From contig NZ_QWBU01000002.1 of NCBI RefSeq assembly GCF_003432075.1, positions 62,001 to 126,000 of the forward strand: a DNA stretch of 64,000 bases. The letters run 5' to 3'. Position numbers and translations under genes: made by a program. Under the pieces are notes generated by a model. That model was not told the origin of the DNA, did no database searches, and saw nothing but the letters and a program-made list of their open reading frames with translations. Of the stretch, positions 19,156 through 54,037 are shown piece after piece. The stretch is from Shinella sp. WSJ-2. GTDB lineage: Bacteria; Pseudomonadota; Alphaproteobacteria; Rhizobiales; Rhizobiaceae. Each line of letters begins with the position of its first letter. The stretch's first letter is position 1.

Positions 19156-20040
19156 ATGTTTCCGGACGATCCGGTTTTCCTCCTCTCGATGATTGTCGCG
19201 ACGCTCGGCCGTTCCAATGAATTGGACGCGCTCTTCGCTTCGCTTGCCGCCTTCGGTCGGCGCGATTTCGAAGTCATTCTCGTCGACCAGAACAAGGACG
19301 ACCGGCTCGTTCCCATCGTTGCTGCGTGGGCCGACCGCCTGACGATCCGCCATCTCAGGACCGACCGCCCCGGCGTCTGCCGCGCCCGCAATCTCGGCGC
19401 CGCCGAGGCGCGCGGCACATGGCTGATCTTCCCCGACGACGATTGCTGGTATCCTGCCGATCTCCTGAAGCGTTTCGATGCCATCGCCGCCGCAGAACCC
19501 GCGGATTTCTATTGCGGCCGCGCCGTCAATGCCGAAGGCGAGACCATCATGGGGCGGTTTTCGCTGGAGCCGCAGCCCATCGTGCGGGACAATGTCTGGA
19601 CGACGCTGATCGAATGGATGCTGTTCGTCCGCCGTGAGGCCTTCGCCAAGGCGGGTGGATTCGATGCGCGCATCGGCCCCGGCTCCGGCACGCCTTGGGG
19701 GGCCTATGAGGTGCAGGACCTGGCTCTGAACCTCTTGTCTAACGGCGCGAAGGGCCGTTACGACCCCGCGCTCACCGGCCACCATCCCGATGACCGCCTG
19801 CTCGCCGAAACGCCCGATGGTGCGCGCAAGATGCGCGTCTATGGTGCTGGTCTCGGTTACGTCATGCGAAAACATGGTTACCGGTTTTTTGATTACCTTC
19901 CTCATCTTCTACGCCCGATCGCCGGCATGGCGGTTTATACGGTGACCGGCCGCTCCGCCCTTGCCCGCCGCTCGCGGGAAATCCTCGCCGGACGCTGGTC
20001 CGGCTGGCGCTCGGCAACCTCGGGAAGGACGATATCTTAA
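19156..20040 (+). CDS. Family 2 glycosyltransferase
   Basis: Inverting nucleotide-sugar glycosyltransferase, 294 residues. The GT-A fold shows in the N-terminal LSMIVATLGRSNELDALFASL, DFEVILVDQN, RPGVCRARNLGA and the metal-binding acidic motif IFPDDDCWYP, with acceptor-side GTPWGAYEVQDLAL. The ATG at 19156 is the first plausible start; the frame continues upstream to a TTG at 19093. The flippase gene follows 73 bases later. Together they suggest assembly of an exported glycan. Acceptor and sugar are unknown. Confidence 0.85.
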   Translation: MFPDDPVFLLSMIVATLGRSNELDALFASLAAFGRRDFEVILVDQNKDDRLVPIVAAWADRLTIRHLRTDRPGVCRARNLGAAEARGTWLIFPDDDCWYPADLLKRFDAIAAAEPADFYCGRAVNAEGETIMGRFSLEPQPIVRDNVWTTLIEWMLFVRREAFAKAGGFDARIGPGSGTPWGAYEVQDLALNLLSNGAKGRYDPALTGHHPDDRLLAETPDGARKMRVYGAGLGYVMRKHGYRFFDYLPHLLRPIAGMAVYTVTGRSALARRSREILAGRWSGWRSATSGRTIS

Positions 20041-20070
20041 GGGTTTCGTCCTAGGGTTCCCCGCTGAAGA

Positions 20071-20089
20071 ACCGCGGCGTTTCCGCGGT
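20071..20089 (+). promoter_or_regulatory. Hairpin in leader of flippase gene
   Basis: Perfect 7-bp stem ACCGCGG / CCGCGGT with 5-base loop, 25 bases before the preferred flippase start. Without a U-run it is more likely a leader structure than a terminator. Confidence 0.35.
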
Positions 20090-20113
20090 CGCATGCGGCG
20101 GATGGAACGACCG

Positions 20114-21643
20114 ATGAGCAAGGGCATTATGTCCAATTCGATCATGAACGCGGCGGCGGGAATGCTGCTGCTGGTGACTGGCTTTGCCTGTTCGATCCTG
20201 GTGGCCCGCCTGCTCGGGCCGGAGGCGAATGGCACGATTGCGTTTGCGCTTTGGATCGGCGCCACGGGTGCTTTGGTCGCCGAGCTTGGCACCGGCGTTC
20301 TGCTTCTGCGCCTTCTGCCGCAATTGAAGGCGCGCGGCGTCGACGAGGCGGGCCGGCGCGGCTTTGCCGCCTATCTCGCGCTGCCGGTCATTGCCTCGAC
20401 GCTGCTCCTCGTCGCGCTTTATTTCGGTCTGGCCTTCAAGACCCCGCTGCTCTATGGCACGGATGTCACGGCTGGCATCGTCGTGCTCACGGCCGCCCTG
20501 CTGATTATCCAGTCGATCGGTTCGTTCTCCAAGAATTTCCTGATCGGTGAGCAACGCGTCGGCACCTTTTTTCGCATCACCGCGCTGTCGTCGCTGCTTC
20601 AGATGACGTTCGTCATCGCCGGCGCCGCCTTTTACGGTATCGATGGCGCGCTGTTCGGCTATATCGCCGGCCAGTGCGTGCAGTTCCTCTACACGCTCAG
20701 TCTGTTTGGCGTGCGCCGCGACAATGCCGGCTATCGCCGCCGCTACCTGCTCGCCACCTCGGCGGTTCTGTTCTTCGAGTATGTCGTCAGCGCGATCTTC
20801 CTCAGCCGCCCGGAACTGTTCTTCCTGCAGCATTTCCGCTCGCTCGGCGAGGTCGGCTATTACGCCGTGGCGCTGTCGCTGGCCAATCTGGCGCTGCAGC
20901 TTCCTGTGCAGCTGACGGGCAGTCTGCTGCCCTACTATGCCGAGCGGCGCGAAGCCTCGGGCGGCACGGTGCATGTCGCGGTGTTCGATGGCGTTGTGCG
21001 CAGCTTTGCCTATATCACCTTTCCGCTGTGCTTCGGCCTGGCGGCCATCGCCCACCCGCTGGTGACAGCAGTCTATGGCGCGCCCTTTGCAGAGGCCGGG
21101 CTGATCGTTGCGATCCTCGCGGCAGGGTCTCCGGCCTATGTGCTCGGTCAGCTCGTCACGCAATATCTCTATTCCATGGACCGGGTGAAAATCCGGCTTG
21201 TGGCCTCCGGCATCGGTGCCACACTGATGGTCATCGGCTGCCTGCTCGTGGTGCCGACCTGGGGCGGGGCGGGGGCGGCGACCGTACGCGGCGTGGTCTT
21301 TGCCGTCATCGCCGTTCTGCTTCTGACCGGCGTCGGCCGCGGCGCTATGTCGGCGCAGCTGCCGGGCGTGCTGATCAAGGTGGCCTTGGCGGGCGCGGGC
21401 TGCGGCCTCGCCGCCTGGCCGGTCGCCGAGGAAATCGGCGGTTTTGCGGGCGTCGTCGCGGGTATCCTGGCCGGCGCGATCGCCTACGCGGCGCTGCTGC
21501 GCCTGTTACGCGCCGTGCCGCCGGAAGACGGCGCGGTCATTGACGGCATGCTGAAATCGCTGCCCATGAAACCCGGCCGTATCGCGCGCCGTCTGCTGGC
21601 CTTCGTGGTGCCGATGCCGGCCGCCCAGCCGGCGGGGGAATGA
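20114..21643 (+). CDS. Polysaccharide flippase (Wzx/MOP family)
   Basis: Integral membrane protein of 509 residues with 12-14 hydrophobic helices, the MOP/Wzx architecture that flips lipid-linked oligosaccharide across the inner membrane. The N-terminal AAAGMLLLVTGFACSILVARLLGPEANGTIAFA is typical of this family. In-frame ATGs at 20093, 20102 and 20114 are all possible; 20114 is chosen because GGAACG precedes it. It lies after a GT2 gene and the hydrolase gene follows, with its alternative start overlapping the flippase stop. Substrate unknown. Confidence 0.85.
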   Translation: MSKGIMSNSIMNAAAGMLLLVTGFACSILVARLLGPEANGTIAFALWIGATGALVAELGTGVLLLRLLPQLKARGVDEAGRRGFAAYLALPVIASTLLLVALYFGLAFKTPLLYGTDVTAGIVVLTAALLIIQSIGSFSKNFLIGEQRVGTFFRITALSSLLQMTFVIAGAAFYGIDGALFGYIAGQCVQFLYTLSLFGVRRDNAGYRRRYLLATSAVLFFEYVVSAIFLSRPELFFLQHFRSLGEVGYYAVALSLANLALQLPVQLTGSLLPYYAERREASGGTVHVAVFDGVVRSFAYITFPLCFGLAAIAHPLVTAVYGAPFAEAGLIVAILAAGSPAYVLGQLVTQYLYSMDRVKIRLVASGIGATLMVIGCLLVVPTWGGAGAATVRGVVFAVIAVLLLTGVGRGAMSAQLPGVLIKVALAGAGCGLAAWPVAEEIGGFAGVVAGILAGAIAYAALLRLLRAVPPEDGAVIDGMLKSLPMKPGRIARRLLAFVVPMPAAQPAGE

Positions 21644-21651
21644 GGGGACGT

Positions 21652-23445
21652 ATGTATTTGGGCGAGGAGAAGACAGAGGCAAAGTCGGAGCAGATCGCCA
21701 GATCCGCCTGGCATTCCGGTGAGGCGGCGCATCCCGTCGTTTTCGGCGCAACCGTCGGCCTCTATACGCCGCCGGCGGCGGGAAGCCTGCTTTCGGATGC
21801 CGCCGTGCTGTTTCTCAGCCCTTGGGGTTTCGAGGAAATGTGCACGCGAAAACTCTGGCGTCTGCTGGCCGAGCGTGCCGCGACGCTGGGTCTCGCCAGC
21901 CTGCGCTTCGATTATCCGGGGACCGGCGATGCGCTCGATCTTTCGGAGCCCGCCGATCTCGCGGCCTGGGACGACAGCATCATCGAGGCGGCTCGCACGC
22001 TACGCCGCTTTTCTGGCGCCCGCCGGCTGGTCCTGATCGGCCATGGCCTGGGCGCGACCTTCGCCGCACGGCTGGCCAAGGTGCTCGGCGCCGATTCCGC
22101 GGTGTTGATGGCGCCCGTTGTCAGTGGCCGTTTCTATCTGCGCGAACTCTCCGCATGGTCTAAGATGGTCGATGAAGGCCTGGGTCTGCGGCAGGAGCAG
22201 CGCATCACTGAAGGCACCGCCGTTGCCGGCCTCGTCCTGCCGGAAAAGATCGCCGAGACGGTGCGTGGCTTCAATCTTGAACGGCTTGAAGCCCAGCCCT
22301 TCGCGAGGGCGCTCATCGTGGAGAGGCCGGGTCGGGAAAAGGATGCGGCATTCGCCGCCCATCTCGCCGCGCTGGGCACCACGATCGCCCGTTTGGACTA
22401 TGCCGGCTATGACGATCTCGTTTCCAACCCCACGCTGGCGCATCAGCCGTTGGCGGTGATCGATGGTGTTGCGGAATGGCTTGCGCAGCTTGCCTATAAA
22501 GGCGCGAATGCGGATGCATCGGAGCCCCTGCCGACGGCAGTCGATCTGGCCGGTGATGGCTTTGTCGAGGAGCCGGTGCGGTTCGGCGACAACGCCCGGC
22601 TGTTCGGCACGCTCTGCCTGCCCGCCGGTACGCGCCGTGGTGCCACGGTCCTGCTGTTCGGCACGGCCTATGACCGGCAGGCCGGCTGGGCGCGGGGCGT
22701 GACGGAAACGGCGCGGAACCTCGCGAGAAACGGCGTTGCCTCGCTACGCTTCGATGCCGCGAATGTCGGCGATAGCCCGCCGGCTCCGGCCGCACCCGAA
22801 CAGGTGCAATACAGTGACGCCCAGCTGGCCGACGCCCGCGCCGCCGTCGATCTGCTTGACAAACGTGGTCTCGGACCGGTCGTGGCAGCGGGGCGGTGCA
22901 GCGGTGCCTATCTCGCCTTCCGCGCCGCCGTCGATGACCGCCGTATCGCCGCCGTCGTGCCGGTCAATGCCTATACGTTCCGCTGGGATCCCGACATGTC
23001 GGTCGACGAGGCGCTCAAGGTCAATCCGCGCTCGCTCGACGATTATCGTCAGCGCTTGTTCGATCCGGCGACTTTCCGTCGGCTTTTCGCCGGAGAGATC
23101 AATCTCGGCCGGGCGCTTTCCAATGTCGGCCTGCAGATCCTTCGCCGGCTTATCGCGCTTTCCCCCGGTCTTTTCGGCCGCTTCACCAGCGCCGGCCGGC
23201 TGAGCCTGGCGGCGCATGGCGATTTCCACAATCTCGCGGCCCGCAAGGTTCCTGTCCTGCTGATCTACAGCGAAGGCGATGTCGGGCTGGAGCGTTTAAA
23301 ACTTGATTTCGGCCGTCGGGGCCTCTCCCACCACGGCAATGTCACGGTCGAGACGATCTCCGACGCCGATCACAACCTTTCCCCGCCGCAGGCGCAGGCC
23401 GCCTATCGCGCGCTGCTGCTCGATGCAGCCCTGAAAGCCGGCTGA
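21652..23445 (+). CDS. Double alpha/beta-hydrolase protein, first lobe lacking the nucleophile
   Basis: A 597-residue protein made of two tandem alpha/beta-hydrolase lobes. In lobe 1 (residues about 30-285) the nucleophile elbow reads G130-H-G-L-G, with glycine where serine should be. In lobe 2 (about 300-595) it reads G414-R-C-S-G, placing Cys416 at the nucleophile position, and a late histidine is present in SDADHNLSP. Lobe 1 is therefore probably catalytically dead, and lobe 2 may be a cysteine-type hydrolase or acyltransferase. No signal peptide. The start at 21652 has GAGGGG in front; an ATG at 21640 overlaps the flippase stop. Likely co-transcribed with GT2 and the flippase. Confidence 0.8.
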   Translation: MYLGEEKTEAKSEQIARSAWHSGEAAHPVVFGATVGLYTPPAAGSLLSDAAVLFLSPWGFEEMCTRKLWRLLAERAATLGLASLRFDYPGTGDALDLSEPADLAAWDDSIIEAARTLRRFSGARRLVLIGHGLGATFAARLAKVLGADSAVLMAPVVSGRFYLRELSAWSKMVDEGLGLRQEQRITEGTAVAGLVLPEKIAETVRGFNLERLEAQPFARALIVERPGREKDAAFAAHLAALGTTIARLDYAGYDDLVSNPTLAHQPLAVIDGVAEWLAQLAYKGANADASEPLPTAVDLAGDGFVEEPVRFGDNARLFGTLCLPAGTRRGATVLLFGTAYDRQAGWARGVTETARNLARNGVASLRFDAANVGDSPPAPAAPEQVQYSDAQLADARAAVDLLDKRGLGPVVAAGRCSGAYLAFRAAVDDRRIAAVVPVNAYTFRWDPDMSVDEALKVNPRSLDDYRQRLFDPATFRRLFAGEINLGRALSNVGLQILRRLIALSPGLFGRFTSAGRLSLAAHGDFHNLAARKVPVLLIYSEGDVGLERLKLDFGRRGLSHHGNVTVETISDADHNLSPPQAQAAYRALLLDAALKAG

Positions 23446-23449
23446 TTTT

Positions 23450-25897
23450 TTAGAAGGAGATGACGGTTTCCGCGCCGATGCCGCGGACGGTGCCATGCGG
23501 CTTTGCCGCGGGGGCGGTGCCGGTGCGCGGCGAGAGCCTGACAGGCTTGATCCTGCCCGGCGCCAGATGGAACCAGCTGTCATCGGCCAGAAAGCCCTCC
23601 GCCTCGATGGCGACGGACTGAGCGAGGCGGTCCGCCGAAAGATCGAGCACCCAGCCCTCCGCATCCTGCCGCAACTCTGCTGAAAGGATGGAAGGCGCCA
23701 TTGCCTTCGCCCGGCCGCGCGGGAAATGAAACGCTTCGGCCACCATCCGCCCCCCGCCATCGAGCAACCGGCCGACCGTGACGTCATGGGCGGGCGGGCC
23801 GAAGCGGAAGGCGTAGGTCGTGTCGAAGAAGGCGCCGAACAGATCGGTCGCCGGCAGCGTCGTGGAGGAGTGTGGGGCGAGCGCTATGTCGCGCTTGCCG
23901 GAGACGATGGTCTGCCGGCCGCGGCGCAGGCAGGCGAGGTCTAGCGTCAGGTGCTGTTCGTGGGCGCTGTCGTTGTGCACATGCACGTCGAGGCCGTTGG
24001 TGCCCTCGTCGGACAGCGTGACCTGCACGGGGCGGAAAGCGCGACGCAGCGCATGCCAGGCAGATTTCGGCAGGCCCGTTGCATCGACGGTGCCCCAGCC
24101 GGCGCCGGTTAGCAGGTCCTGATAGGTCCAGACCAGCGCGCCGTTGCAGGTCGATTTCTCGCGCCGCCATTCGGCAAAGGTCGCTTCCATCACCTCGGCG
24201 ACGGTCGCGCGGGAGAGGTCGAGATAGAACGAAGGGTCTTCGCGGCGCAGGCGGGCTGGGTCTTCCTCATAGAGCAGGCCGAGATAGTGGTCTCGCACAT
24301 CCTCGAAATCCCAGGAGGCGCCACGGTCGCGCGGCACACGCGCCTTCCAGCGCGGATCGTGCACGGCGGGCACGGGCAGGTGCGCGTCGAGCGTTTCCTG
24401 CTCCGGCACATTGGCGAAGGCCAGGCTTTCGGCGGCAAAGCGCACCTCGGCGCGGCGTGCGTCTTCCAGCGGCCGGCAATACGCGCCGACACCGTAGTAG
24501 TGCGTGACGCCGGCATTCGGCGAAAAGGGCATGGCGCCGCCGCTGGGCGAATTCTCGACATAGGGCACATCGGGGCGGTGTGTGGCGACGAGCGCCGGCA
24601 GGATGTCGAGCGTCAGCGGTCCGGCCCAGGCCGCCTCCGGCAGGCCGAGCATCGCCGCCTGCTGGTCGATCTCGCTGCCGCCGCAGAGCACGGCGAGCGA
24701 CGGCGATGCGGCGGTGGCGTCGAGGAATTGCGAAACCTCCGTCTGCACATTCGCGGCGAAGGCCGGATCGTTCGCCGGATAATCGAAATTGGCGAACTGG
24801 AAATCCTGCCAGACGAGGATGCCGAGCTCGTCGCACAGCGCAAAGAAGTCCGGCGTCTCATAGGCCATGGTGCCGCCGATGCGCAGCATATTCATATGGG
24901 CGTCGGCGGCAAGCTTGAGCAGCGGTTCGTAGCGCTCACGCGTGCCGGGCAGATCGACGATATCGGCATTGGTCCAGACCGCACCACGGCAGAAGATCTT
25001 TGTGCCGTTGACGACGAGAGCGAAGTCGCGGCCATCGGCGCCGCGGTCGATCTCGATGCGGCGGAAGCCGGTGCGGCCGAGCTTTTGCCTGACGCCTTCC
25101 ACCACAAGGAAAATATCGTGCAGGACGGGCGTGCCATGCGTGCGTGGCCACCAGGCCTTGACGTCGGGGATGGTGAGGCTGGCGCTGAAACTGTTCTCAC
25201 CACTGGGGATCGCTGCGGCGCTGACGCCGGCACATTCCACGACAGGGGCTGTCGCAGCGTCGAGCGTGAAGCCAATCTCCAGCTGGCCCTTGCCGCTTTC
25301 GAGCAGGCGGGCGGAGAGGCGGATATCAGTCGCGATGGCCGGTGTCGGCCGTGTCAGGCGCACCGGCCGCCAGGGGCCGGATGCATGGACCTCCGGGCAC
25401 CAGCCGGGCATGCGGCCGAGCAGGGTGGTGCGCACAAGGCGCAGGCCCTGCGGCGTGATCATCTGCGGGCGCCAGCGGGCGCGGGGGCCGCGTTTTTCCA
25501 GATGCGGTTTTAGCGCACGGAAACACAGGCCGAGGCGGTCGTTACCGGTCAGCGTGATGGGCAAGGCGTGGCGGATGAACATGCTGTCGGAGGACAGCAC
25601 GAGCGCGCCGTTCCACCAGATCTCGGTGATCGTCGCGAGGCCATCGAAATGCAGCACGGCGTCGCCCGGCGCTTCGCCCGAGAGGTCGAGCACATACCAG
25701 GCGTCGAGATGATCGAGCGGTGCGGGGGCGGTGCGGTCGAAGCGGCCGGCGCGTTCCAGAGCACCGGCGACGGTGCCGGGCACGGGCGCGTCGAGGAGAT
25801 CGGAAAGGCTTTCCAGCGCGGCCGGGTCGGCGGCGGCATGGGCCGCTGTCAACGCCATGCGCCAGCCGGTGGAAAGCGCCTTACCGGTCTCGGACAT
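23450..25897 (-). CDS. Glycoside hydrolase family 2 (beta-mannosidase-like)
   Basis: An 815-residue GH2 protein: N-terminal sugar-binding jelly roll (residues about 1-180, GTVAGALERAGRF, WYVLDLSGEAPGD), immunoglobulin-like domain (about 185-290) and a TIM barrel (about 290-600) with GFRRIEIDRG, MLRIGGTMAYETPDFFALCDELGILVWQDFQFANFDYP and CGGSEIDQQ holding the probable acid/base glutamate. The nucleophile is probably the Glu in FAAESLAFANVPE. No signal peptide is visible, so it may act inside the cell, possibly as a transglycosidase or esterase-like tailoring enzyme. GAAGGAAGA precedes the ATG. Last gene of the carrier-protein operon. Confidence 0.88.
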   Translation of the reverse strand: MSETGKALSTGWRMALTAAHAAADPAALESLSDLLDAPVPGTVAGALERAGRFDRTAPAPLDHLDAWYVLDLSGEAPGDAVLHFDGLATITEIWWNGALVLSSDSMFIRHALPITLTGNDRLGLCFRALKPHLEKRGPRARWRPQMITPQGLRLVRTTLLGRMPGWCPEVHASGPWRPVRLTRPTPAIATDIRLSARLLESGKGQLEIGFTLDAATAPVVECAGVSAAAIPSGENSFSASLTIPDVKAWWPRTHGTPVLHDIFLVVEGVRQKLGRTGFRRIEIDRGADGRDFALVVNGTKIFCRGAVWTNADIVDLPGTRERYEPLLKLAADAHMNMLRIGGTMAYETPDFFALCDELGILVWQDFQFANFDYPANDPAFAANVQTEVSQFLDATAASPSLAVLCGGSEIDQQAAMLGLPEAAWAGPLTLDILPALVATHRPDVPYVENSPSGGAMPFSPNAGVTHYYGVGAYCRPLEDARRAEVRFAAESLAFANVPEQETLDAHLPVPAVHDPRWKARVPRDRGASWDFEDVRDHYLGLLYEEDPARLRREDPSFYLDLSRATVAEVMEATFAEWRREKSTCNGALVWTYQDLLTGAGWGTVDATGLPKSAWHALRRAFRPVQVTLSDEGTNGLDVHVHNDSAHEQHLTLDLACLRRGRQTIVSGKRDIALAPHSSTTLPATDLFGAFFDTTYAFRFGPPAHDVTVGRLLDGGGRMVAEAFHFPRGRAKAMAPSILSAELRQDAEGWVLDLSADRLAQSVAIEAEGFLADDSWFHLAPGRIKPVRLSPRTGTAPAAKPHGTVRGIGAETVISF

Positions 25898-25908: not shown

Positions 25909-26862
25909 TCAGTCGATGCGGGTGGCCAAGTCAGCCATAAGAGTATCCCACGCTTCGATCGCCGGATCGAGCGCCGTCGCCAGCGGATCGAATTTCCGGC
26001 GCGTCACGGCGCGGGCGAGCTGGAACTGCACGGACTTCGCCGTCTCCGAGATTTTGCGCGCGGCGTCGCTGCCGTCGACACCGAGCCAGTCGAGATGGCT
26101 GCCGGCCAACTCGAAATTGGCGCCGAGCTGGCGCAGCGTGTTGAAGGCATATTTATGGAAGAAGCCGAAGGGGCGATCCGCCACGGCCTCGACCTGCTTC
26201 GGAAACACCTTTGCGAAGGCCGCGACCGGGTTTTGCGAAGGACGGCGTGCGAAATGGAACGCGAGCAGGCGTTTTGCCTCATGGCGCAAATGCGCCTCGT
26301 CCGGTTGCTTTTCCGGGAATTTGGCGAATTCCGTATAGGGCAGGAAAGGCAGGTCTTCGGGGCCGTCGTTCAGGTGGAACAGCCCGTCGAAATCCTCGCC
26401 CTCCAGCCGGAAGAAGCCGGCATTGTGGAAATAGTCGAGCTGCTTTGCCTCGAGATCCAGCCGGTTGATCGCGACCGTCGTCTTGCCGTGCTCCTGCCGG
26501 TAGGCGACGCCGCGGGTATCCGGCATGTAGAAGCTGTCCATCTCGACGAGGCAGAGGCGGCCGCGGGCGATCTGGGTCGCGACATGGCTTTCCACCGTGT
26601 CGAAGATGGCGAGTTCCGTCGCGCGGATGCCGTAGAGTGCTTCGAGGTCTTCCAGCGGCACCTTGAAGAAGGTGAACTGGTCGCCCTCGAAATCCTGCGT
26701 CAGCGAGAAGCCGAGCACCGCCTCGGGCTGGGTGCCGAACGCATTCAGCACCTCGATCCAGAGGTCGACGTAACAATTCGTCTCCGGCCACATGCGCTCC
26801 GCGTCGTGCAGGGCATGCGGCCGGTAGGTCTCGGGATTGGCCCCGGCGAAGACGGCAGCCAT
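25909..26862 (-). CDS. DUF1839 family protein
   Basis: A 317-residue protein recognised as DUF1839, a family typically found beside amino acid:[carrier protein] ligases. Visible features are ETNCYVDLWIEVLNAFGTQPEA, LGFSLTQDFEGDQFTFFK, GRLCLVEMDSFYMPDTRG and HLRHEAKRLLAFHFARRP, with many conserved aromatics. The layout suggests a papain- or transglutaminase-like substrate pocket (Cys in TNCYVD, Asp/His further on), but that is speculation. The start lies one base after the ligase stop, with AGGA upstream, so translation is coupled. It could be the acyltransferase that uses the aminoacyl-carrier protein. Confidence 0.85.
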   Translation of the reverse strand: MAAVFAGANPETYRPHALHDAERMWPETNCYVDLWIEVLNAFGTQPEAVLGFSLTQDFEGDQFTFFKVPLEDLEALYGIRATELAIFDTVESHVATQIARGRLCLVEMDSFYMPDTRGVAYRQEHGKTTVAINRLDLEAKQLDYFHNAGFFRLEGEDFDGLFHLNDGPEDLPFLPYTEFAKFPEKQPDEAHLRHEAKRLLAFHFARRPSQNPVAAFAKVFPKQVEAVADRPFGFFHKYAFNTLRQLGANFELAGSHLDWLGVDGSDAARKISETAKSVQFQLARAVTRRKFDPLATALDPAIEAWDTLMADLATRID

Positions 26863-26863
26863 G

Positions 26864-27778
26864 TCAGTCCTGGTATCCCAGGGTCTTGCGGACTTCAGCC
26901 GGCCACAGCGCGATATCCATGCCGTGGCGGGCGAAGAGTGCGAGCGCGATGCGCTCCAGGCCGAAGCCGACGCAGGCAGTGTGCGCGACATCGCCGTTTT
27001 CGAGGTTCAGGCCCCACTTCGCGCCAAAAGCGTCCTGGTGATAGTTGAAGCTCATGCAGGCCGTCGGCTTGGCGGCCGAGGTGACGGGGATCAGTAGCTC
27101 GAACTTCAGGTTCTGGTCGCGTTGATTGTTGGCCATCATGCGGCCCGCGCGGCCGAAGAACGGGTCGTTGGCGACGTCGATTGTCACGTCGAGGCCGACC
27201 TTGGCCATCATTTCCAGGCCGCGATCCATCCAGGTCTGGCGGAACTCGGTGACGTGTTCCTGTGTGCCCATGCAGACATATTCGCGCATGCGGAACAGCT
27301 GCTGGCGGGCCGGGTCATTGGAGGGCTCGTGGCGGAAGCAGTAGGACTGCAGGTCGTAGAGACCGCCCTTGGCCGGAAGGCGGCCGCGCTTGGCGATGGT
27401 CGGATAGAGCGGGTAGCAGGCGGCCGGCGTCAGCACGATGTCCGTCGCCTTCTGGTCCTTGGTCCAGTCGCCGTTTACTTCCATGCATTGCAGCAGGTTC
27501 ATGTGGTCGGCATCGCCGCCGCAGAAGCTGTGCACGGTGCCGGCGAGTTGCGGAAAACTCTTCATGTAGCCGGAGGTTTCGAAATGCGCGCGGTTCATGC
27601 CCGGCGGAAAGCGCATGGCCTCCGCGCCGTCGGCACCGCCGAAGGCATCGATCAGCCGCTCGAAGCGGGCGATCACATCTTCGAAGGCACCCGAGCGGCC
27701 ATAGAGGCCTTCGACGCCGGTATCGATGAGCAGACCGGAATCGAAGAGCCGGTCGAGAAGCGAAGTCTGCATATCCAT
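26864..27778 (-). CDS. Amino acid:[carrier protein] ligase (class II synthetase-like)
   Basis: A 304-residue homologue of the catalytic core of atypical seryl-tRNA synthetases. Family members do not charge tRNA; they adenylate glycine or alanine and load it onto the phosphopantetheine arm of a small carrier protein. Motif 2 is [21 protein letters not shown] (Arg149) and motif 3 GFGLERIAL (Arg276). The zinc triad Cys121, Glu166, Cys269 has spacing 45 and 103, as I recall for the Bradyrhizobium glycine:CP ligase. There is no N-terminal tRNA-binding coiled coil. The start lies four bases after the dehydrogenase stop. Its own carrier protein is encoded two genes upstream. Confidence 0.92.
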
Positions 27779-27782
27779 GGTG

Positions 27783-28955
27783 TCACCCGATCAGGCTGGT
27801 GTCCTGCTTGTGAACAAGCAGGAGGTTGGACGTGTTGCCGAGGATGCGGTCGTTGGAGATCATCAGCTGGGCGGAATGCGCATCGCGCAGATGCCGACCG
27901 AGGCTGAACGGCGTGCCGTTCTTGTAGCCCATGATGCCGACGATCAGCATGGCCTGGTTGATGATGGACAGGATCGTTTCCGAGGAGGCGATCTTCACAT
28001 TGTTCATCGCCACCGCAAAACCCATGGAGGAGAGCCGGTCCGGATCCGCCTTGGCCGCTTCGTATTCGCGAAGCCCGGCGATCGTGTTGGACTTGACGAG
28101 TTGCAGCAGGTTGGAGGCTTCCGCCAGACGCAGGGCACCGGGCGGTGCAACGCCGGGGCTCTTGCGGGCGGCGGCGCGGACGAAGGCCTGAGCGCGGGCG
28201 ACCGCGTTGACGGCGATGCCGTACCAGACCGCACTCCACAGCAGGTGCGAAGTGGCGAGCATCGACTGGGCGGCGATCTCGGCGAAGGGTTTCGGAAGGA
28301 TCTGTTCCTTCGGCGCCTCGCCCTTGAACAGCCAGCCGTCCGAGCAGGTGCCGCGCATGCCGAGCGTATCCCAGACATGGGTTTGCTCCAGCGTGTACTG
28401 ATCCTTGGTGAAGACCGTCATGACTTGATCGGTCGAGGCGGCATCCGCATGGGCGCGCGAGGTGATGAGGATCGCGTCGGCGTGCGCACCGTAGGAGATG
28501 ACGGTGGCGTCCTTCGTCAGGCGGCAGGTGTCGCCGTCGATCTCGATCGCGCAGATGCTGTTGCGCAGGTTGCCGCCGATGCCGCCTTCGGTCGTCGCAG
28601 AGGCGAGCAGCAGCTGCTCGTCGGAGACGCGGCGCATGAAGCCGGAATGCCAGGTGTCGCCAGCGCCGTGCGAGACGAGGCTCGACAGCTTGATATGGTG
28701 CATGGCGAAGACCATGGCGGCGGCCGAGCAGCTCTGGCCGATGAGCGAGCAGACTTCGGCGATCTGCGAAAGGGACGCATCCTCGCCACCGAGCGCGGCG
28801 GGGATCTGGATGGACAACAGCCGTTCGGCGATCATCGCGTCGACTGCTTCGCGCGGGAAGCGGCCCTTGACGTCCACATCGTCGGCATGCGCTGCGGCCA
28901 CGGCGGAAACGCGCTCGGCGCGTTCCGCAAGGCCCGAACCGACGGTGAGGGTCAT
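27783..28955 (-). CDS. Acyl-CoA dehydrogenase-like flavoprotein
   Basis: A 390-residue flavoprotein of the acyl-CoA dehydrogenase fold: N-terminal helical domain, middle beta domain ([36 protein letters not shown]) and C-terminal helical domain ([29 protein letters not shown]). The usual late YEGT glutamate region reads RILGNTS, so the classical base is displaced or missing. Its ATG overlaps the carrier-protein stop (ATGA). This suggests it acts on the carrier-bound aminoacyl thioester, as such enzymes do on prolyl carrier proteins in pyrrole synthesis; substrate here is inferred. Confidence 0.88.
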
Positions 28956-29206
28956 TCGGCGGCCTCCGCATTGCCGACGAGGCTCGACACCGCACGCGTG
29001 ATAGCGTCCACGCTCTGGAAGGACTTGCGGTTGAGCAGGTTGTCGGGGAATTCCACGTCGAAGGCTTCCTCGATGCCGAGCATCACCTGCACGGAGGCGA
29101 AGGAGGACAGGCCTGCCGCATAGAGATCGGCATCGTCGGCGAGCGTCTCGACCGGAACCGGGAGGCCGCCATGTTTGCCCAGGATATCACGGATCTTCTG
29201 CTTCAT
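28952..29206 (-). CDS. Acyl carrier protein for the amino acid ligase
   Basis: An 84-residue carrier protein of the ACP/PCP fold. The phosphopantetheine site reads GLSSFASVQVML, aligning with the common GLDSLATV, so Ser35 is the likely attachment site and the preceding aspartate is replaced by serine. Following helices (IEEAFDVEFPDNLLNRKSFQSVDAITRAV) are typical. The start at 29206 has GGAGAAG five bases upstream; an earlier ATG at 29218 overlaps that ribosome site and is less likely. First gene of the operon; it should be loaded by the downstream synthetase-like ligase. Confidence 0.9.
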   Translation of the reverse strand: MKQKIRDILGKHGGLPVPVETLADDADLYAAGLSSFASVQVMLGIEEAFDVEFPDNLLNRKSFQSVDAITRAVSSLVGNAEAAE

Positions 29207-29516
29207 GTTCTTCTCCATCGTTTCTCGGCCGGCCGGGGCTGGCTGTGCTTATTCTTCGAGAAAGATATAACCGACGGTTGATAAGATCGGCTGAAGGGAC
29301 ATGGATAAGATTTTGTGAAGCCGCAAAAGTGGGCGCTCCGTTCTGAACCGGGCATCACCGAGGCTTCGTGAAAAAATACAGAATGGCCCTGCTTTTTCAG
29401 GGTGTTGCGCGCAATCTCCACTGTCCTGCAATGGCACGGTGTGTTGCCGTTTGCATTGCGTTAGCCATACTCTGAAAGCGTGTGGGGTTGGCGGCTTCAG
29501 GGCTTGAAAAGTCAGC
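29207..29516. other. 310-bp intergenic region before the carrier-protein operon
   Basis: No gene seen. It must hold the minus-strand promoter of the carrier-protein operon and the 3' end of the GH5 message. A small hairpin CCCTG-CTTTTT-CAGGG lies at 29387-29402. I cannot pick a convincing -35/-10 pair. Confidence 0.4.
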
Positions 29517-30569
29517 TTAAGGAAGGGCCGGGCAGGCGCCGGGCTTTGCCGGCAGGCCGCCGCCGGCGATGAGGGCTGCGAGCTGCGGTCGGTCGCCGTC
29601 GGCGGTCGGCTGGATGTTCAGCGCTTCCGTCGCCGGCCACCAGTCGCCGCCGGCCCAATAGGTCCAGCCGGTCCAGACCGCCGGTTCCTTGTTGACGAGC
29701 GCCGTCATTCGGGCCAGGCCGTCGAGGCAGGCCTTGTCGGCGGAGCCGCCGAACTCGCCCAGAAAACCGCGCTTGCCGTTGCGCTTCAGCCAGTCGGTGA
29801 AACCCTCAAGCGCCTTGACCGCATCGTCGGCGCGCGCGCAGGTTTCTGCCTTGCCGGAAAAATCGTCGTCGAGATACTGGTGCACCTCATAGGCGTGGTT
29901 GTTGGCGGGGTCCTCGATGCCGAGCATGACGGTGCCGTTAGCGCCGCCGTCGCGCTCCGTTTCCCAGCTGTGTGCACCCGTCCAGATCGTGCCCGGCACC
30001 AGCACGAGGTTCTTTGCGCCCGTCTCGCGGATGGCGGCGATGGCGGCATTGGCGGAGGCGAGCCATTGCATCGCCGTCACGTCATGGGGCTCGTTCATCA
30101 GGCCGAACTGCACGCCGGCATCGTCCTTGTAGTCCTCGGCCAGCCGCTTCCAGAAGTCGGCGAAGGCGCTGTCGGGCACCTTGGCCGAGCCGATCTGGTT
30201 GTCGCCGTAATAGGCGTAGTTGTGCGGGTCGAGGATGACCGTCATGCCGGCAGCGCGCAGCGCCTTCACGGTCTCGGAAAGCCGCTTGTGCTCCGCCTTT
30301 TCGAAACCGCGCTTGAGGCGTGGTTGCAGCCGTTCCCATTTGAACGGCAGGCGCACGGCGTTGAACCCCTTGCCGGCGAAATAGGCGATCGTCTCGGCCG
30401 AAGGATAGGCATAATCCTTGCCATAGGTGCCACGGCCCTTGCCGAACTCGGCGCCGGCCAGATTGACGCCGCGCAGGCAGCCGGCGCTCGCCTGAGCCGG
30501 GATCGCAAGCGAGACCATGGCCGCCACCACCAGTTTCGAGAGTGCCGATGCGCGGCCCGAGGATACCAT
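29517..30569 (-). CDS. Secreted glycoside hydrolase family 5 (cellulase-like)
   Basis: A 350-residue exported GH5 enzyme. A signal peptide (SKLVVAAMVSLAIPAQASA) ends before residue 30. The barrel shows GCLRGVNLAGAEFG, AVRLPFKWERLQP, DPHNYAYYG, the acid/base glutamate in GLMNEPHD and the nucleophile glutamate in FLGEFGGS. The substrate is likely a beta-glucan or related polymer. The ATG at 30569 is preceded by GGAG; an ATG at 30581 is also in frame. It lies between a GT4 gene and the carrier-protein operon on the same strand, so it may trim or release the glycan made by this locus. Confidence 0.9.
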   Translation of the reverse strand: MVSSGRASALSKLVVAAMVSLAIPAQASAGCLRGVNLAGAEFGKGRGTYGKDYAYPSAETIAYFAGKGFNAVRLPFKWERLQPRLKRGFEKAEHKRLSETVKALRAAGMTVILDPHNYAYYGDNQIGSAKVPDSAFADFWKRLAEDYKDDAGVQFGLMNEPHDVTAMQWLASANAAIAAIRETGAKNLVLVPGTIWTGAHSWETERDGGANGTVMLGIEDPANNHAYEVHQYLDDDFSGKAETCARADDAVKALEGFTDWLKRNGKRGFLGEFGGSADKACLDGLARMTALVNKEPAVWTGWTYWAGGDWWPATEALNIQPTADGDRPQLAALIAGGGLPAKPGACPALP

Positions 30570-30631
30570 GGCTGTCTCCATTCCGGGTTTGGTGCCGCCG
30601 GACCTGCGTGAAAACAAAGGGAGCGAACGTG

Positions 30632-31900
30632 TCAGGCGCCCGGACGTTCCGCGAGAAGCCCACGGGGCTCGCCGTACTTGGTCCCGCCAAGGGTAGCACG
30701 ATATACGTCTGCGTAGCGATCCGCCACGCGATCCCAGGAATAGGCTGCCGCCGCGTCCATCGCCGCGCGGCGATAACCGGCGGGATCGAGCACCAGCATG
30801 GCATGGGCACCCGCAATAGCCTCGGCGGCCCTGCGAGCATCGGAAAAATCGCAGAGACGGATTTCCGGATGGCTGGCGGCGAGGTCGGTATAGGCAACGT
30901 TCGGGTGCAGCACCGGCACGAGGCCGGCGCTCATCGCTTCGATGGCGACGAGGCCGAAGCCTTCGTATTCGGAGGCCGAGGCGAAGAGTGAGGTATCGCC
31001 GATCAGCCCGCGCACGGCCTCGTTGGGGAGACCGATATGCACGGTGACATTGGCGTTGAGGCCACGCGCCCGCACCATGCCGGCCAAGTCCTCGGCGGAA
31101 TGGTCGCCCGGCACGCCGGCAATGTCGAGGTGCCAGGTTGGGTCGGTCGCGGCGAGTTGCACCATTGCGTCCATCAGCCTGTCGAGGCGCTTGTTGACGG
31201 AGAAGCGGCCGACGGTGATCAGCCGGCGGCGGGCATCGCGGGCGCCGGCATCGCCGAACTTTTGGGTATCGGCGCCATTGTCGATACGCACGACGCGGCT
31301 GCCGGCGACCTTTTGGAAGGTTCGGGTATCCTGCGCGCTGCAGCCGATGATGCGGCGATAGGCGAGCGCCGAAAGCCGCGTCGTCGTGTTGAACCAGATC
31401 GTCTTGAGGCCGGAGAATTTCGCCGTGTGGAAGAAGCCGCCATGGGTCGTGGCGATCAGCGGCTTGCGATGCGCCAGCCAGCCCCAGGCGAGCGCGTCAT
31501 AGAAGAAATCGATGGCATGCACATGCACGATCGCAGCATCCGAGAGATGGCGGAAGACCTGCGGGGCGATCGGATAGCGCGTGCTGCCGGAATACGGGAT
31601 GCGCACGACCTCGACGCCGTCAATGATCTCGCGTGCCGGCAAGGTCCTGTCGGGTGCGGAAAACAGCCGGTCGAGCGTGATGACGCGTACGCGAAAACCG
31701 CGCGACAGGAGCTGGCGTGACAGCTGCGCAACGACATCCTCCAGCCCGCCGCGGTTCGGGATGTACTGGCGCACGACCTGCACGGCCAGCGGCGCTGAGA
31801 CATTCGAGGCGGCAAGGGTGGCAGGGTTCATCGCGGTCATCCGTAGCAGGGGATCGAGCGCCGCAATCGCACGAGCGACGACGCCGCTGGGCGACACCAT
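30632..31900 (-). CDS. Family 4 glycosyltransferase
   Basis: Retaining GT-B glycosyltransferase of about 422 residues. The N-terminal acceptor domain has RQYIPNRGGLEDVVAQLSRQL and VHVHAIDFFYDALAW; the C-terminal donor domain has TVGRFSVNKRLDRLMDAM and the E-x7-E element in SEYEGFGLVAIEAMSAG. The N-terminus is uncertain: in-frame ATGs at 31900 and about 31840 are both possible and neither has a strong ribosome site. The GH5 gene follows on the same strand. Confidence 0.87.
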   Translation of the reverse strand: MVSPSGVVARAIAALDPLLRMTAMNPATLAASNVSAPLAVQVVRQYIPNRGGLEDVVAQLSRQLLSRGFRVRVITLDRLFSAPDRTLPAREIIDGVEVVRIPYSGSTRYPIAPQVFRHLSDAAIVHVHAIDFFYDALAWGWLAHRKPLIATTHGGFFHTAKFSGLKTIWFNTTTRLSALAYRRIIGCSAQDTRTFQKVAGSRVVRIDNGADTQKFGDAGARDARRRLITVGRFSVNKRLDRLMDAMVQLAATDPTWHLDIAGVPGDHSAEDLAGMVRARGLNANVTVHIGLPNEAVRGLIGDTSLFASASEYEGFGLVAIEAMSAGLVPVLHPNVAYTDLAASHPEIRLCDFSDARRAAEAIAGAHAMLVLDPAGYRRAAMDAAAAYSWDRVADRYADVYRATLGGTKYGEPRGLLAERPGA

Positions 31901-31937
31901 CGCGCCCAATCGCGCCGATCAAGACGCCTGCGATGTT

Positions 31938-37576: not shown

Positions 37577-38524
37577 ATGAAGCGACTGAAGAAATTCTTC
37601 TGGCCGCTGGTCAGCACGGTCGCGATCATTCTGTCGATCTATATTCTCTACAAGGACCTGAGGGGCTTATCGCTTGACGAGTTCATGGCGAGCATTCACG
37701 CCATTCCCGTCTCGGGCTGGGTGCTGGCCTGTTGCGCGACACTCGTCGCCTATGCGGCGCTGGCGGCCTATGACCATCTGGCGCTGGAGCATCTTGGCCA
37801 CCGCATCTCGCTGTGGTTCATCACCGTCACCTCGTTCACGACCTATGCGCTCTCGCACAATATCGGCGCCTCGGTCTTTTCCGGTGCGCTGGTGCGCTAT
37901 CGGGCCTATACGGCAAAGGGGCTGACGGCATCCGAGGTCGGCGTTCTCGTCGCCTTCTGCTCGTTTACCTTCGCGCTCGGCACGGTGATGCTGTTCGGCC
38001 TTGTTCTGGTGTTTGAGCCGGAGATCGTCGGGCGTTTTTCCCATGTCCTGCCGATCGAGGCGGCCTTTTCGACCGGCATCTTCATTCTCGGGCTGGTCGT
38101 GCTCTATGTGATCGGCAGCCTCGTCGGCTTCCGGCCGATCAACACGCGCTGGCTGAAGCTCGAATACCCAAAGCCTTCGCTGGTCTTCCGCCAGCTGTTC
38201 ATCGCGCCGATCGAGCTGATCGGGGCCGCCGCGATCATCTATTTCGTGCTGCCGGCGGAGGGCAATCCTGGTTTCTTCGTCGTGCTCGGCATCTTCCTCG
38301 CCTCCTTCTCGGTCGCCCTGCTCTCGCATGCGCCAGGCGGCATCGGCGTTCTCGAGCTGGTTTTCATCGCCGGTCTGCCGGATATCGATCCCGCCAAGGT
38401 TCTGGCGGCGCTCGCGGTCTTCAGGCTGTTCTACCTCATCATTCCGTTCATCATGGCGCTGGTGGTCATTCTCATCTACGAGCGCCAGCGGTTCCTCGCG
38501 CGGCTCGGCAGCAGCGAAGACTGA
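37577..38524 (+). CDS. YbhN/AglD-like membrane protein (UPF0104, LPG synthase TM domain)
   Basis: A 315-residue polytopic membrane protein with about eight helices of the lysylphosphatidylglycerol-synthase transmembrane (flippase) family. Characteristic are SFTTYALSHNIGASVFSGALVRYRAYTAKGL and the C-terminal SHAPGGIGVLELVFIAGLP. It lacks the cytosolic MprF aminoacyltransferase domain, so it probably transports or flips a lipid. AAGGCGGA precedes the ATG. The 200 bases before it hold no convincing gene. Confidence 0.88.
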   Translation: MKRLKKFFWPLVSTVAIILSIYILYKDLRGLSLDEFMASIHAIPVSGWVLACCATLVAYAALAAYDHLALEHLGHRISLWFITVTSFTTYALSHNIGASVFSGALVRYRAYTAKGLTASEVGVLVAFCSFTFALGTVMLFGLVLVFEPEIVGRFSHVLPIEAAFSTGIFILGLVVLYVIGSLVGFRPINTRWLKLEYPKPSLVFRQLFIAPIELIGAAAIIYFVLPAEGNPGFFVVLGIFLASFSVALLSHAPGGIGVLELVFIAGLPDIDPAKVLAALAVFRLFYLIIPFIMALVVILIYERQRFLARLGSSED

Positions 38525-53318: not shown

Positions 53319-53888
53319 TCAATCCTTGGCGCGTTCCACGTAGGAACCGTCTTCCGTCGCGATGACGACGCGCGTGCCGGCCGAGATGTGCGGCGGCACC
53401 AGCGTGCGAACGCCGTTCGACAGGATCGCCGGCTTGTAGGACGACGAAGCCGTCTGGCCCTTCACGACCGGTTCCGTCTCGGCGATTTCGAGCGTGACGT
53501 GACGCGGCAGGTCGATGGCGATGGCAACGCCTTCATGCACCGACAGGATGACCGTCATGCCTTCCTGGAGATAGGCCTTGAGGTCGCCGATGTCCTCTTG
53601 GGACATGGTGAGCTGGTCGTAGCTCTCCGGGTTCATGAAGTGGAAGCCTTCACCGTCCTCATAAAGGAAGTTGTGCTCGCGATCTTCGACGAAGGCGCGC
53701 TCGACCTGCTCGGTCGTGCGGTAGCGCTCGGAGACCTTCACGCCATCGGAGATGCGGCGCATGTCGATCTGCGTGACCGGCGTGCCCTTGCCGGGGTGGA
53801 AGTTCTGCGCCGTCAGCACGACATAGAGCTTGCCTTCGACCTCGAGGACATTGCCCTTGCGGACGGAAGAGGCGATGATCTTTACCAT
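53319..53888 (-). CDS. efp: Translation elongation factor P
   Basis: EF-P, 189 residues, relieves ribosome stalling at proline runs. Three beta-barrel domains; the modification loop reads NFHPGKGTP with Lys34 in the E. coli position, so it should be beta-lysylated. Divergent from epmA-epmB, which encode the modification enzymes, making this a self-contained EF-P module. Confidence 0.97.
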
Positions 53889-54037
53889 AAGTCTTCCTTG
53901 TAAGTGGATGGTTCGCGTCGTAGAGGACCGTTAAGGACGCTTCCCGGACGCTGAAAATCTGTATTCGGGGCCGCAACTACCCTATATCACGGCAAAAGAC
54001 CAGTCTTGCCGTCCGCATGGTCGAAGAAACCTGTCAT

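What the first reader, a model, noticed from the sequence alone, without database searches (positions are those of the whole stretch)
25909..29206. Non-ribosomal aminoacyl-carrier-protein operon with unknown product
Four tightly packed genes encode a carrier protein, an acyl-CoA dehydrogenase-like flavoprotein, a class-II-synthetase-like amino acid:[carrier protein] ligase with an intact zinc triad (Cys121/Glu166/Cys269), and DUF1839; a GH2 gene follows 11 bases after DUF1839. The joins are an ATGA overlap, then gaps of four bases and one base. The ligase family is known to load Gly or Ala on carrier proteins, but the step after loading is undescribed as far as I know. The gene order predicts load amino acid, oxidise on the carrier, transfer by DUF1839, act on a glycan by GH2.
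Basis: partly seen in the sequence, partly recalled or inferred. Interest (0 to 1): 0.85.

Follow-up and report, generated by a model that had tools for sequence, protein, structure and literature searches.

The report
Carrier-bound amino acid transfer operon
A conserved set of five or six bacterial genes appears to load an amino acid onto a small carrier protein, modify it with a flavin enzyme, and hand it to an unidentified acceptor, perhaps an amino sugar; the loading step is known from relatives, while the later steps are predictions that can now be tested.

Summary
The order is not local: 38 of 39 further operon loci read carry all five in this order. A fused alpha/beta hydrolase is a frequent sixth partner. 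The outline function (amino acid joined to a sugar amine by the 'uncharacterized ORF', e.g. Atu2574) was predicted in print in 2010, so the step after loading is not wholly undescribed. Added here: (1) DUF1839 models confidently (pLDDT 91.5) and its 19 significant PDB matches are all AziU3/U2, CtaG or CcbD chains; CcbD joins a carrier-bound amino acid to an amino sugar. No sequence-level link was found. (2) The flavoprotein lacks the catalytic glutamate at both known positions in 51 of 51 sequences, like the aminoacyl-carrier N-oxygenase ChmG, so oxygenation fits better than dehydrogenation, though searches also return dehydrogenases. (3) In four loci the operon DUF1839 lost its cysteine, and each time a second, cysteine-intact copy is present. 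(4) A sister clade keeps flavoprotein and ligase (carrier in 10 of 11) with no DUF1839 or GH2 in the stretch read. Acceptor, amino acid and GH2's role remain unknown.

The parts
28952..29206 (-). Aminoacyl carrier protein, 84 aa from the ATG behind a GGAGAA site (88 aa from the upstream ATG at 29218); Ser35 (Ser39 in 88-aa numbering) is the predicted phosphopantetheine site
   Evidence: NF005480 119.9 bits over cut-off 72; best PDB matches 2jq4 (Atu2571) and 4h2w_C, a carrier protein in an entry with the ligase; Ser invariant in 40 of 40
27783..28955 (-). Acyl-CoA-dehydrogenase-superfamily flavoprotein without the catalytic glutamate; predicted aminoacyl-carrier oxygenase
   Evidence: Weak Pfam ACAD matches; Ser236 and Ile366 at the two known base positions, no Glu there in 51 of 51; DnmZ/KijD3/nitrososynthase at ranks 3-6 of the profile search, below two dehydrogenases
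26864..27778 (-). Amino acid:[carrier protein] ligase (class II synthetase-like), zinc triad Cys121/Glu166/Cys269
   Evidence: NF005479 510 bits over cut-off 357; 4h2w/3mey E 5e-97 / 1e-92; triad invariant in 51 of 51
25909..26862 (-). DUF1839: predicted cysteine-dependent carrier-protein:amine amide synthase (Cys30, with His146 and Asp157 as candidate partners)
   Evidence: PF08893 E=5e-134; AF2 model pLDDT 91.5; Foldseek AziU3/U2, CtaG, CcbD; Cys30 in 133 of 137 rows, His146 in 137, Asp157 in 136 (134 rows distinct)
23450..25897 (-). GH2, beta-mannosidase-like glycoside hydrolase with both predicted catalytic glutamates (Glu409, Glu490)
   Evidence: PDB beta-mannosidases E 9e-45 and first by profile; both Glu invariant in 39 of 39
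21640..23445 (+). Fused pair of alpha/beta hydrolase domains (resembles exosortase-A-system hydrolases 2 and 1, below their cut-offs); frequent sixth partner, convergent here
   Evidence: in 27 of 40 fetched regions; annotated as overlapping GH2 by 4 bases as a sixth gene on Mycetohabitans and Azospirillum plasmids
19961..21643 (+). Polysaccharide flippase-like membrane protein (context)
   Evidence: Polysacc_synt_3 E=1e-12; in 11 of 40 regions
29517..30617 (-). GH5 glycoside hydrolase upstream of the operon (context)
   Evidence: PF00150 E=3e-55; in 8 of 40 regions
30632..31909 (-). GT4 glycosyltransferase (context)
   Evidence: PF00534 E=2e-21; in 13 of 40 regions, two of them only at 27 and 41 bits

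Best explanation
It is a dedicated, carrier-protein-dependent aminoacylation pathway. Step 1 (shown biochemically for relatives, by recall; inferred here): the class II synthetase-like ligase adenylates a small amino acid (Gly or Ala) and puts it on the phosphopantetheine of the carrier protein. Step 2 (inferred): the flavoprotein modifies the carrier-bound aminoacyl group, more likely by flavin-dependent oxygenation, perhaps at the alpha-nitrogen, than by dehydrogenation. Step 3 (inferred from fold and conserved residues): DUF1839 takes the group onto Cys30 and passes it by a ping-pong mechanism to an amine, most likely an amino sugar, making an amide as CcbD does in celesticetin biosynthesis. 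Step 4 (weakest): the GH2, assumed cytosolic, and the alpha/beta hydrolase pair prepare, trim or recycle the acceptor or product, in many genomes probably in connection with a surface polysaccharide.
For: Order ACP-ACAD-LIG-DUF1839-GH2 in 38 of 39 operon loci of other genomes and, same direction throughout, in 79 of 80 named close relatives, the last cut by a contig end. Ligase and ACP over curated cut-offs; close PDB relatives are a ligase and a carrier protein found in one entry, 4h2w. DUF1839: confident model; the 19 matches with E<=0.001 are only AziU3/U2, CtaG and CcbD, the next being at E=0.015. CcbD loads carrier-bound proline on a Cys and gives it to a thiooctose amine (PMC12945683, passages). 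Cys30 kept in 133 of 137 rows; the 4 exceptions are operon copies in genomes that also hold an intact copy. ACAD: no Glu at either known base position in 51 of 51, DnmZ/KijD3/nitrososynthase at ranks 3-6 of 71; ChmG is a precedent for an ACAD-superfamily N-oxygenase acting on an aminoacyl carrier protein (PMC11177257, passages). Glycan genes lie near part of the loci: GT4 13, flippase 11 of 40; Wzz 11, initiating sugar transferase 6, Wzc 3 of 48 stretches clustered (named).
Against: No sequence-level link of DUF1839 to CcbD or CtaG: the profile found only 5hu4 at E=0.79. BtrH_N is matched by 3 of 40 members at best E 0.0021, no stronger than a plainly spurious NCBIfam hit at 0.0024. The fold match is moderate (TM 0.53-0.64, rmsd 5.5-7.3 A, 11-16% identity), and AziU3 is (recalled) a ring-forming enzyme, so the fold does not fix the reaction. 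For the ACAD, dehydrogenases come first by single-sequence search, by profile (ranks 1-2) and in NCBIfam (FadE16-type, below cut-off), and the structure search does not separate dehydrogenases from oxygenases. Plasmid loci in Azospirillum and R. rhizoryzae have no glycosyltransferase, flippase or polymerase listed in the 15-19 kb shown (that gene table is incomplete), which weakens the surface-polysaccharide acceptor. No amino-sugar gene was identified among the window neighbours scanned.
Confidence: 0.5

Rival explanations
1. The same machine makes a free small metabolite (an aminoacylated sugar or glycoside, signal or metallophore), not a surface polysaccharide; GH2 releases or trims the sugar part and the alpha/beta hydrolase frees the product.
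For: Operon occurs without listed glycan-assembly genes close by on plasmids of Azospirillum sp. B510 and R. rhizoryzae; six genes with a 4-base GH2-hydrolase overlap form a compact unit; the DUF1839 fold relatives CtaG and CcbD (and, recalled, AziU3) belong to small-molecule pathways.
Against: In part of the loci polysaccharide genes (Wzz, initiating sugar transferase, GT4, flippase) lie near the operon; I saw no exporter constantly linked.
Confidence: 0.25
2. The flavoprotein is a true aminoacyl-carrier dehydrogenase (imine-forming), as the first reader and the family name suggest.
For: Full-length ACAD fold with dehydrogenases first in the structure, single-sequence and profile lists; an ACAD (AzsF, like Tri22) is assigned to dehydrogenation of a glycine-like carrier-bound group (PMC10445470, passages); other ACADs oxidise prolyl carrier proteins (PMC11177257, passages).
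Against: No Glu at either known base position in 51 of 51 sequences, whereas characterised prolyl-carrier oxidases keep it (PMC11177257).
Confidence: 0.25
3. DUF1839 is a hydrolase or editing thioesterase, or makes a different bond (ester, cyclisation), and not an amide synthase.
For: Papain-like folds often hydrolyse (established knowledge); AziU3 (recalled) does ring chemistry; no sequence link to CcbD.
Against: The significant fold matches are AziU3/U2, CtaG and CcbD only, with generic papain-like peptidases well below; constant operon linkage to a loading module.
Confidence: 0.2

Closest known systems
Agrobacterium Atu2571-Atu2574 set and the published prediction for it (Biol Direct 2010, PMC2922099, note added in proof)
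   Same: Same neighbourhood as described there: StRS-like ligase, ACP, redox enzyme, conserved uncharacterized protein (e.g. Atu2574), glycosidase; ligases of two records named A. tumefaciens are 83-84% identical to the window's (L132, L142). Atu2571 is the ACP by its PDB name; the other locus tags are inferred.
   Different: That note predicted an amide ligase without naming a fold in the passages seen; here a fold match, candidate residues, a sister clade, duplicated Cys-less copies and the sixth gene are added.
Amino acid:[carrier protein] ligases (Bll0957, PDB 3mey/4h2w; Mocibob et al. 2010, 2013, recalled and cited in PMC9437257)
   Same: Same family over the curated cut-off, same zinc triad, same kind of carrier protein.
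Lincosamide synthetase CcbD/LmbD with stand-alone loading module
   Same: Carrier-bound amino acid, cysteine enzyme with a matching overall fold, predicted amino-sugar acceptor.
   Different: Loading by an NRPS-type A domain there (PMC4351081, passages), by a class II synthetase-like ligase here; no detectable sequence similarity; Streptomyces antibiotic pathway versus a five- to six-gene operon in proteobacteria.
ChmG / KijD3 / DnmZ flavin N-oxygenases
   Same: ACAD superfamily; ChmG lacks the dehydrogenase base and acts on an aminoacyl carrier protein.
   Different: Sequence similarity is remote and shared with dehydrogenases; activity not tested.

Membership tests
Amino acid:[carrier protein] ligase (NF005479) | Score over the curated cut-off | tested here: met
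   510.4 bits vs 357
Amino acid:[carrier protein] ligase (NF005479) | Zinc-binding Cys/Glu/Cys triad | tested here: met
   Cys121/Glu166/Cys269 in 51 of 51
Amino acid:[carrier protein] ligase (NF005479) | Lacks the N-terminal tRNA-binding part of archaeal-type SerRS | tested here: met
   304 aa; aligns only to residues about 311-513 of 522-527-aa SerRS
Amino acid:[carrier protein] ligase (NF005479) | Loads Gly/Ala on the carrier, not tRNA | not testable with these tools
   Needs enzyme assay
CcbD/CtaG-type carrier-protein amide synthase | Full-length papain-like fold shared with CcbD and CtaG | tested here: met
   Foldseek E 4e-8 to 4e-5 for CtaG and CcbD, TM 0.53-0.64, 312-359 columns
CcbD/CtaG-type carrier-protein amide synthase | Catalytic Cys-His-acid | tested here: inconclusive
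   Cys30, His146, Asp157 conserved, but no coordinates were available to superpose; PMC10318531 names a C(T/S)H triad instead
CcbD/CtaG-type carrier-protein amide synthase | Sequence homology detectable by profile | tested here: not met
   No CcbD/CtaG hit at E<=10; BtrH_N in 3 of 40 at chance-like strength
CcbD/CtaG-type carrier-protein amide synthase | Transfers carrier-bound acyl to an amine | not testable with these tools
   Needs enzyme assay
Acyl-CoA / aminoacyl-carrier dehydrogenase | Catalytic Glu at the MCAD-376 or IVD-254 type position | tested here: not met
   S/C/A/T at 236 and I/V at 366 in 51 of 51; positions placed by alignment and recall
Flavin N-oxygenase (KijD3/ChmG-like) | Closest solved relatives are N-oxygenases | tested here: inconclusive
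   Ranks 3-6 of 71 by profile, below two dehydrogenases; not separated by structure
GH2 beta-mannosidase | Acid/base and nucleophile Glu | tested here: met
   Glu409 and Glu490 in 39 of 39; matched to the mannosidase alignment, roles recalled
GH2 beta-mannosidase | Mannosidase subsite residues | tested here: inconclusive
   The WDWG stretch of the Bacteroides-type mannosidase is not matched in the alignment; subsite roles recalled only

The most novel reading that the evidence does not exclude
A widespread proteobacterial pathway in which a tRNA-synthetase relative loads glycine or alanine on a carrier, an ACAD-type flavoenzyme N-oxygenates it there, and a CcbD-like cysteine enzyme (DUF1839) joins it to an amino sugar: a chemical modification of glycans or a glycoside family (N-oxidised aminoacyl amides) that I know of from no other system, with a sister clade that uses the same modified carrier-bound amino acid for another product.
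Probability: 0.3. Interest if true: 0.85.

Novelty: new variant of a known kind. Interest (0 to 1): 0.62.

Why it matters
[quoted passage not shown] The conserved operon, the fold of DUF1839 and the missing base in the flavoprotein turn that into a chain of single-enzyme tests with mass shifts that can be predicted. If right, it links tRNA-synthetase evolution to glycan or glycoside decoration and gives DUF1839 a function.

Tried and rejected
Considered and rejected: chance clustering (order kept across alpha- and betaproteobacteria). Inactive GH2 (both Glu invariant, 39 of 39). An ordinary fatty-acid or beta-oxidation operon (carrier and ligase over the cut-offs of dedicated families).

Led nowhere: the structure search with the ACAD model does not discriminate. 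Profile search of DUF1839 against PDB found no relative by sequence. NCBIfam on 40 DUF1839 members gave only single chance hits, the best at E 0.0024; the BtrH_N match in Pfam (3 of 40, best 0.0021) is no stronger and is not counted as support. Whether the acceptor is an amino sugar could not be told from the neighbours. Catalytic residues of CcbD/CtaG could not be superposed because model coordinates are not given. The extra low-score 'LIG' ORFs are, in my reading, echoes of out-of-frame extensions in my profile; with the best hit per gene the 80 loci give 79 complete and in order. The ORF scan overextends some starts; gaps were recomputed. The 'c8' cluster is, by position, an out-of-frame ORF over DUF1839/ligase, and some real genes were missed by that home-made caller, so its neighbour counts are rough.

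Selection: the trimmed alignment left out the two Cys-less operon copies of L078 and L080, so 'C30 invariant' there is by selection and is not used; 133 of 137 is. Of those 137 rows 134 are distinct, and three of the named loci have the same ligase as an unnamed one, so the two sets overlap slightly. In L138 and L143 the GH2 is scored low, both on short contigs.

Sampling: 53 genomes with DUF1839 were seen (my count after removing repeats); regions of 39 of them besides the window's own genome were fetched; 13 were not. G515 has two DUF1839 matches; only one was read. Of the plasmid records with two places, two were read. Of the 70 ligase genomes, 20 were fetched, chosen by me. The 80 named loci are the best 80 of 547, thus close relatives. 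Of 59 plasmid records, 6 were read. The alignment for the ACAD model used 28 of 40 sequences, that for GH2 25 of 39, for the ligase 39 of 40, for DUF1839 40 of 42.
Full report
WHAT IS THERE. The five genes lie on the minus strand exactly as described: ACP 28952-29206 (or 29218), ACAD-like flavoprotein 27783-28955, ligase 26864-27778, DUF1839 25909-26862, GH2 23450-25897, joined by -4 (ATGA), +4, +1 and +11 bases. Pfam and NCBIfam give PP-binding/NF005480, weak ACAD domains, NF005479 amino acid--[ACP] ligase, DUF1839 at E=5e-134 and GH2/mannosidase domains. Upstream on the same strand are GH5 and GT4 genes; convergent from the other side are a fused pair of alpha/beta hydrolase domains and a flippase-like protein. 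The genome gives one DUF1839 and one ligase match at E<=0.001. The ligase is 94-98% identical to those of five named Shinella records and 90% to a sixth, so the window is most likely Shinella or very near it.

THE ORDER IS CONSERVED. DUF1839 was found in 5 of 385 genomes sampled from the class, 40 of 199 from the family and 16 of 398 from the phylum, overlapping samples. Forty regions from 39 genomes were read. One (L083) is a second DUF1839 of a genome whose operon is L078. Of the other 39, 38 have ACP-ACAD-ligase-DUF1839-GH2 in this order and direction; one (L047) lacks GH2. Of the 80 best named relatives, 79 have all five in this order and direction and one (L156) lacks the ACP, its contig beginning within the ACAD gene. 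In two (L144 R. lentis, L163 a second locus of R. altiplani) GH2 is in pieces, which could also be sequencing error, and the same two carry Pro in place of Thr64 in DUF1839. Identity to the window falls to 42-49% in the most distant members, so the linkage is old.

A SIXTH PARTNER. The fused alpha/beta hydrolase lies within 27 of 40 regions. It overlaps GH2 by 4 bases in the same direction in L071 and L081 and, as annotated, in Mycetohabitans rhizoxinica pBRH01 and Azospirillum sp. B510 pAB510e. In most of the 26 regions that hold both, it lies on the opposite strand or further away, as in the window. It resembles exosortase-A-system hydrolases 2 and 1 below their cut-offs.

A SISTER CLADE. 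Of 20 further ligase loci from the order (20 of 70 genomes with a hit), 7 have the full set; 11 have ligase and ACAD, with a divergently oriented ACP in 10, and no DUF1839 or GH2 in the 13-17 kb read; 2 have only a distant ligase. These 11 form one clade in both the ligase and the ACAD tree (support 1.0, trees rooted on the window sequence). Ten neighbours of three of them were scanned with Pfam: in L204 an AMP-ligase, a short-chain reductase, a class IV aminotransferase, a TPP enzyme and a homoserine-succinyltransferase-type protein, in L211 an alpha/beta hydrolase, in L197 a nucleoside-phosphorylase-type protein; three had no match. So ACP-ACAD-ligase looks like the common core, and DUF1839-GH2 like the part that defines the window's type. 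This suggests that the flavoprotein works on the carrier-bound amino acid and not on the sugar.

LOADING. The ligase aligns over nearly its whole length with Bll0957 (3mey, 4h2w) and only to the catalytic part of archaeal-type SerRS. Its triad is invariant in 51 of 51. The ACP's best PDB relatives are Atu2571 (2jq4) and 4h2w_C, from the same entry as the ligase. Gly/Ala loading by relatives is recalled from Mocibob et al. 2010/2013; the 2010 paper is not held, and a 2022 review summarises them and calls the role unknown (PMC9437257, passages).

FLAVOPROTEIN. In the alignment with acyl-CoA dehydrogenases, the two positions known to hold the catalytic Glu (recalled: MCAD 376 type and IVD 254 type) carry Ile/Val366 and Ser/Cys/Ala/Thr236, with no Glu in 51 of 51. 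His237, Trp240, Trp244, Asn368, Arg370 and Asn374 are invariant there. A profile search ranks DnmZ, two KijD3 entries and a nitrososynthase 3rd to 6th, but two dehydrogenases stand above them; the single-sequence search puts five dehydrogenases first, the best NCBIfam match, far below its cut-off, is a FadE16-type dehydrogenase, and the structure search mixes both kinds. The best precedent is ChmG, an ACAD-superfamily enzyme with Met in place of the Glu that N-oxygenates a carrier-bound proline (PMC11177257, passages). I therefore favour oxygenation with modest confidence. The counter-precedent is AzsF/Tri22-type dehydrogenation of a glycine-like group (PMC10445470, passages).

DUF1839. The AF2 model is confident (pLDDT 91.5, pTM 0.90). 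Foldseek against the PDB gives 19 matches with E<=0.001, all AziU3/U2, CtaG or CcbD chains; then a gap to E=0.015 and, below it, papain-like enzymes such as phytochelatin synthase and staphopain among unrelated hits. CcbD takes carrier-bound proline on a Cys and gives it to the amino group of a thiooctose, with a Cys-His-Glu triad (PMC12945683, passages). CtaG is proposed to transfer an acyl group between carrier-bound partners (PMC6772006, passages). AziU3 is (recalled) a ring-forming enzyme. By sequence there is no link; a BtrH_N match in 3 of 40 members (best E 0.0021) is no stronger than a chance hit (0.0024). Cys30 is kept in 133 of 137 rows, His125 and His146 in 137, Asp157 in 136 (134 rows distinct). 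The four Cys-less proteins (Arg in three, Gln in one) all sit in the operon position of Cupriavidus or unnamed phylum-level loci (L078, L080, L218, L221), and each of these genomes has a second, Cys-intact DUF1839 (for L078 it is L083), in L221 directly before an alpha/beta hydrolase ORF. A free active-site Cys thus seems to be needed once per genome; other genomes with two copies (G515, some plasmid records) were not all read. The published assignment is C-(T/S)-H (PMC10318531, passages); I could not decide between this and Cys30-His146-Asp157.

GH2 AND ACCEPTOR. GH2 is closest to beta-mannosidases, with both Glu invariant in 39 of 39. No obvious secretion signal is seen at its N-terminus (by eye; no predictor was run), so cytosolic work is an assumption. 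Polysaccharide genes stand near part of the loci: GT4 in 13 and flippase in 11 of 40; Wzz in 11, an initiating sugar transferase in 6 and Wzc in 3 of 48 stretches clustered, families named from one representative each. The annotated plasmid loci of Azospirillum and R. rhizoryzae list none in the stretch read, in a gene table that is incomplete. The acceptor may therefore be a soluble amino sugar or glycoside rather than a polymer.

PRIOR ART AND NOVELTY. The 2010 note in proof already proposed amide formation with a cell-surface sugar amine by Atu2574 and modification 'probably via monoxygenation' (PMC2922099, passages). In the held library DUF1839 occurs in one paper, whose main text does not mention CcbD, LmbD, CtaG or AziU3. 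Searches showed no experimental follow-up of the operon in the rows listed (9 and 19 list only 20 of 81 and 30 of 818). One mention only: Atu2573 is a hub gene in a transcriptome study (PMC11941606, passage). The library lacks most subscription journals, so absence there is weak. The operon is an orthologue of a known set; what is added is the likely chemistry of two of its steps.

Noticed in passing
window 53319-53888 (-) and 54017-55102 (+): EF-P and a class II synthetase paralogue (tRNA-synt_2; by position and size EpmA/GenX-like, name recalled) in the same window; in some Rhizobiaceae loci EF-P, this synthetase and a radical-SAM gene lie directly upstream of the ACP gene (e.g. L058, L070, L085, L086).
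   Followed up: partly
L078/L083, L080, L218, L221: Two DUF1839 copies per genome: the operon copy has lost Cys30, the other keeps it. May be a pseudoenzyme-enzyme pair.
   Followed up: partly
L144 (Rhizobium lentis), L163 (R. altiplani second locus): GH2 in pieces and Thr64 of DUF1839 changed to Pro in the same loci: possible joint decay of the last two genes.
   Followed up: no
L204, L211: Sister-clade loci without DUF1839 in the stretch read: L204 carries AMP-ligase, SDR, class IV aminotransferase and TPP-enzyme genes nearby, L211 an alpha/beta hydrolase; looks like a separate small-molecule cluster around the same aminoacyl carrier.
   Followed up: no
window 37577-38524 (+): Protein with the lysylphosphatidylglycerol-synthase transmembrane domain (PF03706); no synthetase domain matched.
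   Followed up: no
plasmids of Rhizobium, Azospirillum, Mycetohabitans, Caballeronia, Cupriavidus and others: 59 plasmid records carry DUF1839; 19 of these are predicted conjugative or mobilizable, so the operon can probably move.
   Followed up: partly
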